A DNA stretch of 39,088 nt from Chitinophagales bacterium (GTDB lineage Bacteria; Bacteroidota; Bacteroidia; Chitinophagales; Saprospiraceae), in the NCBI GenBank assembly GCA_013298955.1, contig JAAFJT010000020.1, positions 19,194 to 58,281 of the forward strand, given 5' to 3'. Positions within the stretch are counted from its first letter, which is position 1; each line of letters starts with the position of its first letter. The notes under the pieces are model-generated. The model worked only from the letters and a program-made list of their open reading frames with translations. It ran no database searches and had not been told where the DNA came from. Made by a program: the position numbers and the translations under genes. Shown in pieces: positions 8,003-33,302 of this stretch.

Positions 8003-8677
8003 ATGTCAGCATCTTCCTATACGATTCATTCGCGGTTGTATCAACGTTTTAAGTCGATAGAACCGACTGATTTTAGACGTATTATCGCCTTTGTCGAGCA
8101 AAATAAAAAATATGTTTTTCAATTAGATGGAGAAACATATGCTGAAATCGCATGGGTTTATTCCAACGCCTTGTTTGGAATCGGCGATTATTGGCAAGTG
8201 ATTCGGCTTTCGGACGAATTGATTGCTTATGTCATGGAACATAATATAGTGGAAATCAATGGAGAACGTATTTTTGAATCAATCTTATGTCAAAAAGGAA
8301 TGGCATTCATGCACGAAAGGCAATATGATAAAGCTGTTTATATTTTTGAAGAATTGATTAAAATTAACCCTAAAGAGGAGCATGTTGCTATTTTATTGGA
8401 AAAAGCAATGCATGCTGCAAATCCAAATTTAATTCGGCGATGTCGAGCCGTAGCGATTTTTTTATGGTTGACGACCGCGCTTTTAGTGCTTTTAGAGTTG
8501 ATTTTAATACGAACTTTGTTTAAATCTTATCAAAATGTATTTAAATATAGTTATTGGATGACTTTTGGAATGGCGATTTTGGTATGGATTTGTGGGTATT
8601 TGTACCAATATTGGCGGGTACATCGTGCTGTAAATCAACGCATTAAGGTTGCAAAATATAAAAAAATAGTTTTATAA
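8003..8677 (+). CDS. Unknown TPR-like protein with two C-terminal membrane helices
   Basis: The product has 224 aa. Residues about 15-135 are helical. The last part, GMAFMHERQYDKAVYIFEEL followed by IKINPKEEH, reads as a TPR unit (G-AF---qYdkA---FeelikinP). Two hydrophobic segments follow (about 150-170 and 183-203), ending in a basic tail, so both termini should face the cytoplasm. There is no signal peptide. The gene is monocistronic and its TAA lies inside the arm of a 50-bp inverted repeat. Role unknown; membrane-bound protein-protein contacts are a reasonable guess. Confidence 0.65.
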   Translation: MSASSYTIHSRLYQRFKSIEPTDFRRIIAFVEQNKKYVFQLDGETYAEIAWVYSNALFGIGDYWQVIRLSDELIAYVMEHNIVEINGERIFESILCQKGMAFMHERQYDKAVYIFEELIKINPKEEHVAILLEKAMHAANPNLIRRCRAVAIFLWLTTALLVLLELILIRTLFKSYQNVFKYSYWMTFGMAILVWICGYLYQYWRVHRAVNQRIKVAKYKKIVL

Positions 8678-8776
8678 ATTGGAACGCGGAAGACACGGAT
8701 TGAGGAGATTTTCGCGGATTTTTTACAAAAAATCCGCGAAAATCTCCTCAATCCGTGTCTTCCGCGTTCCAATTTA
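8675..8776. repeat. 50-bp perfect inverted repeat (GGAACGCGGA family), copy 1
   Basis: Arms 8675-8724 and 8727-8776 are perfectly complementary with a 2-nt loop. The left arm contains the TAA of the TPR gene. The right arm ends 18 nt from the stop of the convergent beta-barrel gene. A related copy at 33193-33302 shares the backbone GGAACGCGGA...GATTTTCGCGGATTTTTT. Bidirectional termination is likely. Confidence 0.9.
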
Positions 8777-8793
8777 TCCTAATTTATCTGTCA

Positions 8794-10383
8794 TTACAAA
8801 CGCGCTTTCGCACCCACTTGTACAGAAAAAGTACTAATTTTATCTTGATTCGTGCCAACACCTTGTTTCCCAATATGTTGTTGATACAAGGCTTGCGCAA
8901 AAAGGCTCCACCGCCCTCTAAACGTCGGATGATATTCGATACCCGTTCCGACATTGGCAGTGAAATAATAATTATCTTTCAACTGACCAGATTCAAGCAA
9001 ACCACCTTTATAAAATTCTTTAATCGCTTGTTTGGTGAAAGACGTATTATCTGAAACGCGCGCTGCCACAGGCTCACTTGTTTCAATATCGTAATCCGTT
9101 TGTAAAACGCCATTTGCCGAACCGCCAACAATCCCATACATACTCCATTTTTGTTTTTCCACTAAATAACGATTCATATGAATTGGAATATGTACCATAT
9201 TGAAAGCGACCAATTTAGGCTTTGTTCGCTCATAGCCGCCCCCAAAAGTACCCGTAATCGAAATCGCTTCAACAGGACGATAACTTTTGTAAGAATACGT
9301 CAAACCCGATTCAATTTCGGTTTTGCCTTTGCGATATCCTGCCGTCACCCCTGCACCATACCCGTCCGTGACAGACTTGCCTCCAATCGAAAGCGCACTG
9401 TAAAAAGTACTCGCGTGATCCGCATTGAACGCTCCAAACATCCCTATCCGAACACGGCGCGGTTTATAAACAGGTGTTTCCCGCAAAGAAACAGGTGCTA
9501 AAACCGTCGATTCCGCTTTCAATAATTCGGGTTGAATCATAGCGATGGCATCAATTAATTCAATATTTTTTTTATCTATATTTAAATCGTTGATAGCAAT
9601 ACCATTCGATTTATTTTCGGATTCAATTCGTTGTAAATTTGCGTCATTCAAAATGGGTTGTTGTGACAAATCAGTGACTTTCTGAGTGGGTAACATCGCC
9701 GCAATTGCTGACGAAGCCCGATTCACTCGCTCCTCAACTGCTTTTTCGACAGGCAAATTGGGATTTTCAATCGCCGCTTGAGGTGCATTTTCACCTGCTC
9801 CTTTAAATTGGAATTTATTTTCAATCTTCACAGGCGCATCTTTTGTCAAAGGCGCATCTCCTGCTCTCTGATTCCAATCTTTTTTCGGATTAAAATTTGA
9901 TTTAGCTTGTGGCGCAATAGGCACGACTTTACCTTGCACCGACGAATTTGCAGGTGTAATCGATTGATTGATAACCGATTGTGCTTTTAAGTCAACCTTA
10001 TTCGGCACATTCGCTTGTGGAAAACTGCCTTCAAAAACATTGAAAAAAGTCCAAATCGCTAAACCCGATAGTACTAATTCTGGAATTTTGAAACGGATGA
10101 TATAACGTTTCCAAGAAAAAGTTTCCTCCAAAAGTTGCTCCATCCGCGTCCAATGCGCCGCCTTGAAGGGTACATCCTGCCGTTCTGCCGCCTTCCGAAT
10201 CCAATAATCAAACGCCTCATCATCGTTTTCCTCGACGCGCCGAAGCCGTTTTTCAAATAAATCGAAATCAGGTGCAGGGCTATTGTCCCCCTTCTGGTCC
10301 GCATTTGCCTCCATTTGCTGCATGGATTGGCGGATTATATCATCAAAAAATGAATCATTTTCTCTATTCTCCATGTGCTGCAT
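8794..10383 (-). CDS. Trans-envelope anti-sigma-like protein with an outer-membrane beta-barrel
   Basis: The product is 529 aa; ATG 10374 is an alternative start. Residues 1-95 are acidic and helical, with no signal peptide (FDLFEKRLRRVEENDDEAFD, HWTRMEQLLEETF), as expected for a cytosolic sigma-binding head. One hydrophobic helix follows (about 101-119, LVLSGLAIWTFFNVF). A disordered linker of about 180 residues leads to a C-terminal region (about 310-529) of alternating aromatic strands (VRIGMFGAFNAD, YGAGVTAGYRKGKTEIESGL, YYFTANVGTGIEY, WSLFAQALYQQHIG), typical of an OMP_b-brl barrel. The protein could span both membranes and signal to the sigma factor encoded just upstream, whose gene it overlaps by 20 nt. 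This topology is inferred. Confidence 0.75.
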   Translation of the reverse strand: MQHMENRENDSFFDDIIRQSMQQMEANADQKGDNSPAPDFDLFEKRLRRVEENDDEAFDYWIRKAAERQDVPFKAAHWTRMEQLLEETFSWKRYIIRFKIPELVLSGLAIWTFFNVFEGSFPQANVPNKVDLKAQSVINQSITPANSSVQGKVVPIAPQAKSNFNPKKDWNQRAGDAPLTKDAPVKIENKFQFKGAGENAPQAAIENPNLPVEKAVEERVNRASSAIAAMLPTQKVTDLSQQPILNDANLQRIESENKSNGIAINDLNIDKKNIELIDAIAMIQPELLKAESTVLAPVSLRETPVYKPRRVRIGMFGAFNADHASTFYSALSIGGKSVTDGYGAGVTAGYRKGKTEIESGLTYSYKSYRPVEAISITGTFGGGYERTKPKLVAFNMVHIPIHMNRYLVEKQKWSMYGIVGGSANGVLQTDYDIETSEPVAARVSDNTSFTKQAIKEFYKGGLLESGQLKDNYYFTANVGTGIEYHPTFRGRWSLFAQALYQQHIGKQGVGTNQDKISTFSVQVGAKARL

Positions 10384-10930
10384 ACTTTCCTGACAATAAA
10401 ACTTGTAATTTCAATCTTGCTTTGACCAAATTAGACCGAGAAGTACTTTCTGTAATCTCTAATTGTTCCGCAATTTCCTTATGTGAATAACCCTCAATCA
10501 CATACAAATTAAAAACAGCTCTATATGCAGGCGTAAGTTGCCGAATCGCCTGCAAAATATCTTTTTCTGAACACCGCGAAATCGCATCAGGTATATCCGT
10601 ACTCAATGAATAGGCTTGGTCGAGGTCGTCCGTGCGCCTGCGCACCGCTTTTCGGTAATAATCAATTGATGTATTGACCATAATCGTCCGAATCCAAGCG
10701 GTCAAAGCCGTTCCGGGCTGATATTTAGCAATATTTTTAAATATTTTTATAAAACCTTCATGTAAAATATCCAATGCATCATCCTCATTATCCGCGTAAC
10801 GTAGGCACACAGACATCATCTTGCTGTAATGATCCTCATACAGCTTTTTTTGCGCCCATCGCTCCCGAGCGATGCAGGCTTCCACTAAATGTTGTTCCTC
10901 TGCGTAACCTAAATCCAAAGCAATATTCAT
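10364..10930 (-). CDS. ECF-family RNA polymerase sigma factor
   Basis: The 188-aa product has sigma-70 region 2 at about 25-95 (YEDHYSKMMSVCLRYADNED, then ALDILHEGFIKIF; AWIRTIMVNTSIDYYRK) and region 4 at about 125-180 (LTPAYRAVFNLYVIEGYSHK, EIAEQLEITESTSRSNLVKA). It lacks regions 1 and 3, as ECF factors do. The downstream membrane/beta-barrel gene overlaps its end by 20 nt, which implies translational coupling and a sigma/anti-sigma pair. It has its own near-consensus promoter. Its regulon is unknown; envelope or surface functions are typical for such pairs. Confidence 0.92.
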   Translation of the reverse strand: MNIALDLGYAEEQHLVEACIARERWAQKKLYEDHYSKMMSVCLRYADNEDDALDILHEGFIKIFKNIAKYQPGTALTAWIRTIMVNTSIDYYRKAVRRRTDDLDQAYSLSTDIPDAISRCSEKDILQAIRQLTPAYRAVFNLYVIEGYSHKEIAEQLEITESTSRSNLVKARLKLQVLLSGKYAAHGE

Positions 10931-10946
10931 TAGATGAAACGATTTG

Positions 10947-10979
10947 TAAAGTTAGTCAATTTTGCTTGATATATGCAAA
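10947..10979 (-). promoter_or_regulatory. Promoter of the sigma/anti-sigma operon
   Basis: On the minus strand, TTTG (10979-10976) is followed after 21 bp by TAACTTTA (10954-10947). This differs from TAnnTTTG only in the last base. The ATG lies 17 nt downstream of the box. Confidence 0.55.
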
Positions 10980-11068
10980 TTCCGTTTTAAAATTTCTATG
11001 AATTGAACGGTATTAGCGTCTAAATCGCTGCTTTTCCATCTTTTTTTTATTTTTTGCCTAAAACGATT

Positions 11069-11076
11069 TATCTTTG
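11069..11076 (+). promoter_or_regulatory. -7 box (TATCTTTG) of the Rpn gene
   Basis: This is an exact match to TAnnTTTG. The expected transcription start near 11083 lies after the ATG at 11074, so the real start codon should be 11095. No TTG was found at the -33 position. Confidence 0.5.
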
Positions 11077-11094
11077 TTAGCAAATTCAATAACA

Positions 11095-12021
11095 ATGGCA
11101 ACATCAGAGAAATTCATCAATCCGTTTACCGATTTCGGGTTTAAAAAAATCTTCGGCACAGAGGAAAATAAAGAATTATTAATTCATTTTTTAAATACGT
11201 TACTCCCTGTGCATCACCAAATTACGACGTTGGAGTACAAACGAACCGACCGATATGGCAATACGCCCTTAGATAGAAAAGCGGTCTATGATTTGTATTG
11301 TCAGGGCGCAGACGGTTCGCGGTTTACGGTGGAAATGCAGAAGGCGAAACAGACCTATTTTAAGGATCGAGCCCTTTTTTACACCACCTTTCCCATTCAA
11401 GAACAAGCGATTCAGAAAGATAACTGGAATTTCAAATTAGCGGCAGTTTATACGATTGCGGTGTTGGATTTCACTTTTGATAGAAAGGGTTCCAAAGTGG
11501 TGCGCACCATTCAACTTAAAGACGAAGATAATGAGGTTTTTTATAAAAAACTCTTATTCGTCTATTTGGTGATGCCCAATTTTAACAAACCGTTATCTGA
11601 TTTAAAAACGTTTCAAGATAAATGGCTTTTTGTTTTGAAAAATCTTCAAAATTTAGATGAAATACCATCTGTCTTACAAGATGGTATCTTTAAAAAGCTC
11701 TTTAAAGTGGCAGACCTTGCAGGCATGAACCGCAAAGAACGCCAAGATTATGAAGAAAGTTTAAAATATTATCGGGATTTAAAAAATGTAACCGATACCG
11801 CTAAAACCGAAGGTAAAATGGAGGGTAAAATCGAAGGTAAAATGGAGGGTAAAATCGAAGGTAAAATCGAAGGTAAAATGCAAAGTCAAGTTGAAATAGT
11901 GATGCGGAATCACAAAAAAGGGCGGACGAATGATTTCATTGAAGACATTACAGGACTTACTGCCGCAGAAGTGCATCAAATTATTCAAGATTACCAAAAT
12001 GGATTGTATCCTAATTTGTAA
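11095..12021 (+). CDS. Rpn family PD-(D/E)XK nuclease / putative transposase
   Basis: From the ATG at 11095 the product is 308 aa. The opening FINPFTDFGFKKIFGTEENK is the hallmark of the Rpn / PD-(D/E)XK nuclease-transposase family. The nuclease core shows VYDLY (Asp66) and VEMQ (Glu80, Gln82), the D...ExQ catalytic pattern. Residues about 239-262 are six tandem EGK[M/I] units encoded by a 12-bp repeat, followed by a helical tail (GLTAAEVHQIIQDYQNGL). Relatives of E. coli RpnA-E stimulate RecA-independent recombination, and some act in phage defence. The gene stands alone, with a hairpin after the stop. Whether it moves DNA or defends the cell cannot be told here. Confidence 0.9.
   Translation: MATSEKFINPFTDFGFKKIFGTEENKELLIHFLNTLLPVHHQITTLEYKRTDRYGNTPLDRKAVYDLYCQGADGSRFTVEMQKAKQTYFKDRALFYTTFPIQEQAIQKDNWNFKLAAVYTIAVLDFTFDRKGSKVVRTIQLKDEDNEVFYKKLLFVYLVMPNFNKPLSDLKTFQDKWLFVLKNLQNLDEIPSVLQDGIFKKLFKVADLAGMNRKERQDYEESLKYYRDLKNVTDTAKTEGKMEGKIEGKMEGKIEGKIEGKMQSQVEIVMRNHKKGRTNDFIEDITGLTAAEVHQIIQDYQNGLYPNL
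11809..11880 (+). repeat. In-frame 12-bp tandem repeat (six units) in the Rpn gene
   Basis: Six units of GA[A/G]GGTAAAAT[G/C] encode EGKM/EGKI. Such a repeat can gain or lose units without shifting the frame, so tail length may vary between strains. Confidence 0.9.
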
Positions 12022-33175: not shown

Positions 33176-33192
33176 TGAACTTCGTTTTTTAG

Positions 33193-33302
33193 GATACAAT
33201 TGGAACGCGGATGACACAGATGGGGCGGATTTTCGCGGATTTTTTTAATAAAAAATCCGCGAAAATCCGCCCCATCTGCGTCATCCGCGTTCCAATTGTA
33301 TC
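33193..33302. repeat. Long inverted repeat (GGAACGCGGA family), copy 2
   Basis: Arms 33193-33246 and about 33250-33302 pair nearly perfectly (one internal mismatch, small offset in the A/T run). The copy shares GGAACGCGGA-GACAC and GATTTTCGCGGATTTTTT with the repeat at 8675-8776. It differs at about six arm positions, each compensated on the opposite arm. It separates two convergent genes. Confidence 0.88.

What the first reader, a model, noticed from the sequence alone, without database searches (positions are those of the whole stretch)
8794..10930. Sigma factor coupled to a protein that may span both membranes
The anti-sigma-like protein has a cytosolic head, one membrane helix, a long linker and a C-terminal barrel, which would give a direct path from the outer membrane to RNA polymerase. 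The genes overlap by 20 nt.
Basis: inference. Interest (0 to 1): 0.6.

Follow-up and report, generated by a model that had tools for sequence, protein, structure and literature searches.

The report
Sigma factor with two-membrane-spanning brake
This is a gene pair for a transcription switch and a brake protein predicted to run from the cell interior through both membranes to the outer surface; the kind is known from gut Bacteroides as Dma or Reo, but in this bacterium's wider group the putative switch-binding part of the brake is repeated one to five times.

Summary
Confirmed. Window 10364-10930(-) encodes an ECF sigma factor. The overlapping gene 8794-10383(-) encodes a head, one membrane helix, a ~190-residue disordered linker and a C-terminal barrel. 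AlphaFold gives an 8-strand barrel at high confidence whose best solved matches are OmpA, NspA, OprF and OmpW; the stated refutation (a soluble C-terminal fold) did not occur. [quoted passage not shown] thetaiotaomicron; EcfO-Reo). Beyond the papers I could read: (1) in Saprospiraceae-type relatives the head is a tandem array of 1-5 copies of a 30-residue unit (window: 2, the first degenerate), similarly conserved along the array, with 16 copy-number changes on the best barrel tree; heads outside the family that I read show one or none detectable. (2) The sigma gene carries GCAGC-N16/17-CGTT upstream in 79 of 81 loci, window included, implying autoregulation. (3) A stricter site elsewhere in the family precedes mostly exported-like genes (22 of 27; SusC-like receptors, BamA-like, barrels), hinting at an outer-membrane regulon, though not in the window's own genome. 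Spanning, sigma release and multi-sigma binding are inferred. The overlap is probably 11 nt (start at Met4), not 20.

The parts
10364..10930 (-). ECF sigma factor gene, 188 aa
   Evidence: Sigma70_r2 and Sigma70_r4_2; TIGR02937 over its cut-off, TIGR02985 below its cut-off; 64-73% identical relatives in the 80 named-genome loci kept
8794..10383 (-). dual-membrane-spanning anti-sigma-type partner, 529 aa (likely start Met4 at 10374)
   Evidence: ORF; start column; model
10240..10350 (-). head unit 1 (residues about 12-48), degenerate: Phe where at least 90% of relatives have Trp, longer loop
   Evidence: unit HMM i-E 2e-4 on residues 13-30 only, not found by the out-of-family model; alignment A3
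10123..10212 (-). head unit 2 (residues 58-87), canonical unit; its second helix runs into the membrane helix in the model
   Evidence: unit HMM i-E 2e-10; out-of-family model E 0.011; helix 75-119
10027..10086 (-). membrane helix (residues about 100-119), preceded by conserved KxxE (K99, E102)
   Evidence: K in 71 and E in 71 of 73 rows; more positive charge before than after the helix in 64 of 73
9469..10023 (-). disordered linker (residues about 121-305)
   Evidence: pLDDT below 50 over most of it; 189 aa by alignment, 129-222 in 73 rows, unconserved sequence
8797..9465 (-). C-terminal 8-strand outer-membrane barrel (residues 307-529)
   Evidence: strands, pLDDT mostly above 90; VIA NspA Z 18.3 (rmsd 3.0, 155 aligned), OprF Z 17.0 (rmsd 1.9, 132 aligned), OmpA Z 17.1 (rmsd 2.9, 161 aligned); Pfam OMP_b-brl_2 at E 0.01 in 59 of 73 rows, not in the window protein itself
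11006..11031 (-). putative sigma-dependent promoter GCAGC-N17-CGTT, 101 nt upstream of the sigma start codon
   Evidence: same dyad in 79 of 81 loci, none on the reverse strand, mean 0.0 in shuffles, 5 of 5 further family loci; one such site in the window would not be remarkable alone (0.53 expected)
10948..10954 (-). TAACTTT close to the sigma start, possible second (housekeeping-type) promoter element
   Evidence: TAA[CT]TT within 60 nt of the start in 35 of 80 loci, no control computed; its role is recalled knowledge and inference

Best explanation
A sigma/anti-sigma pair of the Dma (Das-Dma, EcfO-Reo) kind. The head holds the ECF sigma factor at the inner membrane through two-helix units. 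The last unit's second helix is continuous with the membrane helix. A disordered tether crosses the periplasm, and the C-terminus is an OmpA-type barrel in the outer membrane. A fault or ligand at the outer membrane (barrel not assembled, barrel bound, or tether cut) changes the head or leads to its destruction and frees sigma. Sigma then transcribes its own operon from GCAGC-N17-CGTT and a small set of mostly exported genes. Shown by computation: gene pair, barrel, helix, linker, units, conserved promoter. Inferred: sigma binding, spanning in the cell, the signal, the release step, the regulon and its purpose.
For: Adjacency 80 of 80 loci in the family, 29 of 29 further loci read, 5 of 5 named Bacteroidota records read. 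Barrel fold. Topology and linker. Putative autoregulatory motif in 79 of 81, spacer sequence unconserved (the motif was found on the same loci), and in 5 of 5 further family loci not used to find it. Stricter motif in 41 family genomes 109 vs 38 for the reversed control (sums mine); 22 of 27 non-sigma downstream genes exported-like vs 94 of 309 flank genes, p 2.5e-7. Published genetics of the same architecture: PMC13088901 (sections read), PMC9308784 and PMC13114119 (passages).
Against: No direct evidence of sigma binding: no complex could be modelled. The head has no PDB relative by sequence. The window's first unit is degenerate. In the window's own genome neither form of the motif exceeds its control (loose 73 vs 69; strict 5 vs 5), and the window's own sigma promoter does not fit the strict form. 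The only other intergenic spacer-17 site there with a gene downstream precedes a lipoprotein-like gene that is hardly conserved: besides the own genome, 1 of the 39 relatives searched has a weak match. In relatives the predicted regulon rests on genes that, apart from the receptors, occur once each. pTM of the whole model is 0.49, so the relative placing of head and barrel is unknown. No 19-residue stretch of the window protein reaches mean hydropathy 1.5; the helix is supported by its relatives and the model. 14 of 73 rows do not reach Pfam's barrel model at E 0.01.
Confidence: 0.85

Rival explanations
1. The chain is cleaved in the periplasm as normal maturation, giving an inner-membrane anti-sigma factor and a separate outer-membrane protein, with no through-signal.
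For: The linker is unconserved and disordered, so it could be cut; regulated proteolysis is a usual fate of anti-sigma factors (recalled knowledge).
Against: Head, helix, linker and C-terminal domain stay in one ORF in the 73 rows of A3, and the linker never falls below 129 residues, which a cut protein would not need. The published Dma and Reo models treat it as one spanning chain.
Confidence: 0.1
2. The partner is an ordinary outer-membrane barrel whose N-terminal helix is an odd export signal; the sigma factor merely sits next to it.
For: The window protein has no anti-sigma family match.
Against: The head unit is conserved along the array (about 2.2 bits per column), lies on the presumed cytosolic side, and is detectable in the heads of a Bacteroides and a Parabacteroides protein beside sigma genes (i-E 0.007 and 0.009); adjacency is 80 of 80. 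The genetics of similar pairs show that the sigma is held in check (PMC13088901, PMC9308784).
Confidence: 0.04
3. Extra head units do not bind sigma but dock another protein (for example a protease adaptor or a different sigma factor), so the array is a hub rather than a sigma store.
For: First units resemble the out-of-family single unit more than last units do (25 of 76 vs 3 of 76 at E<0.01), so first and last units have diverged; the genome holds 22 matches to the TIGR02985 sigma model.
Against: First, middle and last units keep the same core D..W..(M/L)...L at similar information content.
Confidence: 0.3

Closest known systems
Dma1/Dma2 with Das1/Das2 of Bacteroides thetaiotaomicron (PMC13088901, sections read; founding PNAS 2024 paper not held)
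   Same: N-terminal anti-sigma domain, membrane helix, long disordered tether, C-terminal barrel, adjacent ECF sigma gene, Bacteroidota
   Different: Nearest named relatives are Saprospiraceae-type; head unit repeated (2 here, 1-5 in relatives); family-specific promoter; sequences only distantly alike (profile A3 on a B. finegoldii protein whose sigma gene lies beside a NigD-like gene: whole-protein E 6.9e-8 at Z=1000)
EcfO-Reo of Bacteroides fragilis and Phocaeicola vulgatus (PMC9308784, PMC13114119 passages)
   Same: Sigma gene followed by a large anti-sigma with a C-terminal outer-membrane barrel; said to span all compartments and proposed to answer outer-membrane stress
   Different: As above; its regulon is reported to include three nigD genes, whereas the candidates here are SusC-like receptors, a BamA-like protein, barrels and lipoprotein-like proteins
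CnrY-CnrH class II anti-sigma (PMC7406223 passages)
   Same: Two helices joined by a linker as the sigma-binding domain, comparable in size to one unit here (size of CnrY recalled)
   Different: No sequence relation was found; CnrY is not a barrel protein (recalled); single copy
FecR/FpvR-type cell-surface signalling (search-listing abstracts of PMC9249621 and PMC4256889; otherwise recalled)
   Same: Outer-membrane event to an ECF sigma through an inner-membrane anti-sigma
   Different: There the outer-membrane receptor is a separate protein; here receptor and brake are one chain
OmpA / NspA / OprF / OmpW small barrels
   Same: 8-strand barrel fold, Z about 16-18
   Different: Here the barrel is the C-terminal domain of a protein with a presumed cytosolic head

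Membership tests
Dma (dual membrane-spanning anti-sigma) | C-terminal outer-membrane barrel | tested here: met
   by prediction only:
Dma (dual membrane-spanning anti-sigma) | single membrane helix after the N-terminal domain, N-in | tested here: met
   by prediction only; weak in the window sequence alone
Dma (dual membrane-spanning anti-sigma) | long disordered tether | tested here: met
   by prediction only:
Dma (dual membrane-spanning anti-sigma) | encoded next to an ECF sigma gene, in Bacteroidota | tested here: met
Dma (dual membrane-spanning anti-sigma) | the sigma belongs to group ECF21 | not testable with these tools
   no ECF21 model held; the sigma is 38% identical over 172 positions to the sigma of a B. 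finegoldii pair beside a NigD-like gene
Dma (dual membrane-spanning anti-sigma) | sequence relation to Bacteroides pairs of this kind | tested here: met
   profile A3 hits 4 of 5 named comparators, including both B. finegoldii proteins; Dma1-3 of B. thetaiotaomicron themselves were not compared
Dma (dual membrane-spanning anti-sigma) | N-terminal domain binds and inhibits the sigma | not testable with these tools
   no complex modelling or expression data
class I anti-sigma domain (ASDI) | Hx3Cx2C zinc signature (only some members) | tested here: not met
   no cysteine in head residues 1-98
class I anti-sigma domain (ASDI) | four-helix domain | tested here: inconclusive
   no anti-sigma Pfam or NCBIfam model hit; two units could mimic four helices
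class II anti-sigma domain (CnrY type) | two helices wrapping sigma4 and sigma2 | not testable with these tools
   unit size and helix-loop-helix pattern fit; no complex was modelled

The most novel reading that the evidence does not exclude
Each repeated unit is a complete minimal anti-sigma domain, so in Saprospiraceae-type bacteria one outer-membrane sensor carries one to five sigma factors. Copy number, which changes often, would set the store, the threshold and the size of the burst released by one surface event, with sigma feeding back on its own operon.
Probability: 0.3. Interest if true: 0.7.

Novelty: new variant of a known kind. Interest (0 to 1): 0.45.

Why it matters
A single chain from the cell surface to RNA polymerase would be one of the shortest signalling routes there are, and the experimental papers I could find study it in gut Bacteroidales. 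This work shows the same arrangement in every one of 80 Saprospiraceae-type loci read, gives a promoter for a reporter, and shows a natural copy-number series of the putative sigma-binding unit, including named type strains (Flavilitoribacter nigricans with 4 units, two of them nearly alike; Lewinella cohaerens with 2). That makes it possible to test how brake copy number sets threshold and gain.

Tried and rejected
Direct family search: the window partner matches nothing meaningful in Pfam or NCBIfam; relatives reveal OMP_b-brl_2. PDB sequence search with the profile gave two weak hits to designed TIM barrels (about 19 bits) and one weaker hit, taken as chance; the head alone gave two hits at E 0.71 and 3.9. 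No Rfam family reaches its gathering score in the window.

Second fold: I submitted the five-unit relative L083 without an alignment by mistake; mean pLDDT 32, unusable. It used the last job, so the repeat array was not modelled in a long-array member.

Conserved neighbours: an acyl-CoA dehydrogenase gene as in the window lies near 3 of 80 loci, but on the other side of the pair; a gyrA/parC-like gene (naming from the sequence, no family search made) lies upstream in 40 of 80 and is not in the window region compared. Rejected as part of the system.

Regulon from the window's own genome alone: the motif is at background there. I counted 48 sites in 49 loci: the first 30 listed matches and all 19 further spacer-17 ones; 24 spacer-16 matches were not read; 5 of 48 were intergenic. 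One precedes a lipoprotein-like gene that nearly all relatives lack: kept only as a lead. In one search I read 97 of the 109 strict sites; left out were 8 that I took for sigma promoters by contig or sequence and 4 of the window's own genome already read. Of the 27 non-sigma downstream genes, 19 were scanned against Pfam, 8 were not. My signal-peptide rule cannot tell a signal peptide from an N-terminal membrane helix (it counts an FtsH-like gene), and the flank-gene control is not matched for genome or operon position.

Phylum promoter: the dyad is absent from 24 of 24 out-of-family loci read, also in a relaxed form; of the five named comparators one, B. finegoldii L296, has a relaxed match. 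I do not claim it beyond the family. Strand alternation of the barrel is beyond shuffles at 0.05 in 3 of 8 strands only, so I do not lean on it.

Copy counts: the profile was iterated on the same heads. Out of family one unit was found in 19 of 24 and none in 5 of 24. L096 is counted as 1 but seems to hold a second, weak unit; L034 is cut by its contig end and its count is wrong. Conservation per column leaves gaps out and was computed on units found by a profile, which favours conserved columns. The 16 copy-number changes are the fewest on one best tree; well-supported branches alone force fewer (3 to 6 per copy-number class among the classes listed with 8 or more rows).

Full report
OBSERVATION. 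The sigma gene 10364-10930(-) has Sigma70_r2 and Sigma70_r4_2. The partner 8794-10383(-) has no meaningful family match by itself. The 20-nt overlap is real for the longest ORFs. In the alignment of 73 partners the invariant Met is Met4 of the window protein, which would make the overlap 11 nt; that spacing is the commonest one in the family, 24 of 80 longest ORFs, with a start codon at that spacing in 35 of 80. The longest ORFs overlap in 66 of 80 loci.

RELATIVES. The partner is found in 23 of 40 genomes searched as relatives, own genome included, all 23 in the same family group. A scan of named genomes with a sigma alignment kept the best 80 of 361 loci; the titles name Saprospiraceae, Saprospirales, Lewinella, Phaeodactylibacter and Flavilitoribacter, and some only Bacteroidota-level or Chitinophagales bins. 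In 80 of 80 the next gene downstream on the same strand is the partner, 6 of them cut by the contig end. I used 72 of these 80 plus the window for alignment A3, leaving out the 6 cut ones and 2 near-duplicates. A profile of A3 finds a match in 94 of 392 genomes of the phylum; I read the 29 further loci that were returned and 29 of 29 have an ECF sigma gene beside the match; the others were not read.

FOLD. AlphaFold with A3 gives helices 10-24, 40-68 and 75-119, a low-confidence stretch 121-270 and eight long strands between 309 and 528, mostly at pLDDT above 90; pTM is 0.49, so the domains are not placed relative to each other. Foldseek's best match is OmpA (E 5.9e-9). VIA-align puts OmpA, NspA, a Legionella porin, OprF and OmpW at the top over residues 307-529, for example NspA Z 18.3, rmsd 3.0, 155 aligned, and OprF Z 17.0, rmsd 1.9, 132 aligned. 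59 of 73 rows match Pfam OMP_b-brl_2 at E 0.01, the window row does not. Positive charges are more frequent before than after the helix in 64 of 73 rows, K and E of a KxxE motif at the helix start are each present in 71 of 73, and the linker is 129-222 residues (189 here) with unconserved sequence.

THE HEAD IS A REPEAT ARRAY. The heads consist of a 30-residue unit, consensus FDEIIRDKLENLEVPYDPAHWDLMEQRLDE. Counts over the 80 loci plus the window are 1 unit in 5, 2 in 36, 3 in 31, 4 in 8 and 5 in 1; the window has 2, the first weak. L034 is cut and miscounted, and L096 seems to have a second weak unit. First, middle and last units carry 2.23, 2.18 and 2.20 bits per column, with D and W kept in all units that reach those columns (the window's degenerate first unit does not reach the W column in that alignment). 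On a tree of the barrel domain alone copy number needs 16 changes on the best tree against a shuffled mean of 32.8, the least possible being 4; well-supported branches alone force fewer. In Flavilitoribacter nigricans (L064) the second and third units are nearly alike, which looks like a recent duplication relative to the three-unit L054. Outside the family heads hold one detectable unit in 19 of 24 loci and none in 5. In five named records, chosen from the first six rows of 540 matching plasmid-collection records (Bacteroides finegoldii twice, Parabacteroides distasonis, Emticicia, Fibrella), all 5 have sigma followed by a gene annotated as outer-membrane barrel or porin family; their heads show one unit in 4 of 5, with i-E from 2e-7 to 0.02. 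One B. finegoldii pair lies beside a divergent NigD-like gene, which recalls the reported Dma1-NigD1 link (PMC13088901 discussion).

PROMOTER AND REGULON. Upstream of the sigma gene GCAGC-N16/17-CGTT is present in 79 of 81 loci (missing in L042 and L062), 0 on the reverse strand and 0 on average in 50 shuffles, with an unconserved spacer sequence; the motif was found on these same loci. It is also present in 5 of 5 further family loci and in 0 of 24 outside the family. In the window it lies at 11006-11031(-); a single site in 39 kb is by itself at chance level, 0.53 expected, so the case rests on conservation. The loose form is at background in the window's genome (73 vs 69). The stricter form RGCAGCA-N16-CGTTNT, which the window's own sigma promoter does not fit, gives 109 sites in 41 family genomes against 38 for the reversed-pattern control, but 5 against 5 in the window's own genome (sums are mine from the table). 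Of the 97 of these 109 that I read, 41 are intergenic and 36 have a gene start within 350 nt; 9 of these are the sigma gene itself. Of the other 27, 22 have a signal-peptide-like start against 94 of 309 flank genes, Fisher p 2.5e-7 (my own simple rule, not a trained predictor). The 19 of these 27 that I scanned against Pfam include four SusC-like receptors (Plug plus CarboxypepD_reg domains), a POTRA/Omp85 protein, three with OMP_b-brl models (one below the cut-off) and two with a type IX secretion tail; others look like lipoproteins by eye. By BLASTP clustering all but the receptors occur once, so this is a trend, not a gene list.

KNOWN KIND. PMC13088901 (abstract, introduction, section on Das2, discussion, passages and the first part of the reference list read) defines Dma proteins by the same four parts beside ECF21 sigma genes in Bacteroidota, and shows that the hypervesiculation of a dma2 mutant needs das2. 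PMC9308784 and PMC13114119 (passages read) describe the EcfO-Reo pair as spanning the envelope and propose that it answers envelope or outer-membrane stress. The founding PNAS 2024 paper and the B. fragilis EcfO paper are not held. PMC7406223 (passages) describes CnrY, a two-helix class II anti-sigma, and states that only 6% of Bacteroidetes ECFs are associated with class I anti-sigma domains. PMC8999054 and PMC12045153 were seen in passages only and add nothing on this point. I found no description of tandem anti-sigma units in the search listings; these cover open-licence PMC papers only, listings were capped, and only the six papers named here were opened.

MECHANISM. Most likely sigma is held by the head; the membrane helix, which continues the last unit's second helix in the model, and the tether link the head to the barrel; disturbance at the outer membrane frees sigma, which transcribes its own operon and envelope genes. 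Binding, signal and release step are inference. What the extra units do is open: store, avidity, or docking of other partners.

Noticed in passing
window 8676-8790; second copy about 33189-33297: A near-perfect palindrome of about 100 bp between the convergent partner gene and a TPR gene; a search of the own genome lists 103 matches counting both strands, with only 40 of 351 candidates scored, so some 50 places or more: a genome-wide palindromic repeat.
   Followed up: partly
window 11074-12021 (+): Rpn/PDDEXK_2-family transposase-nuclease gene divergent from the sigma gene, with an internal run of GKMEGKIEGK repeats.
   Followed up: no
own genome G000: 22 matches to the Bacteroidetes sigma model TIGR02985, none over its cut-off, the window's sigma among them: many ECF-type sigma factors.
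   Followed up: no
window 10948-10954 (-): TAACTTT just before the sigma start, seen as TAA[CT]TT within 60 nt of the start in 35 of 80 loci, no control computed: possible second, housekeeping-type promoter.
   Followed up: partly
L255, L215: Strict motif upstream of a POTRA/Omp85 (BamA-like) gene and of an FtsH-like gene in relatives; the FtsH naming is from the sequence, no family search made.
   Followed up: partly
L064 residues 45-111: Two adjacent head units nearly alike in Flavilitoribacter nigricans DSM 23189: looks like a recent duplication.
   Followed up: partly
L182 1-1304 (-): In the window's own genome a GCAGC-N17-CGTT site lies 110 nt upstream of a lipoprotein-like gene without Pfam match; hardly any relative has the gene.
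   Followed up: partly
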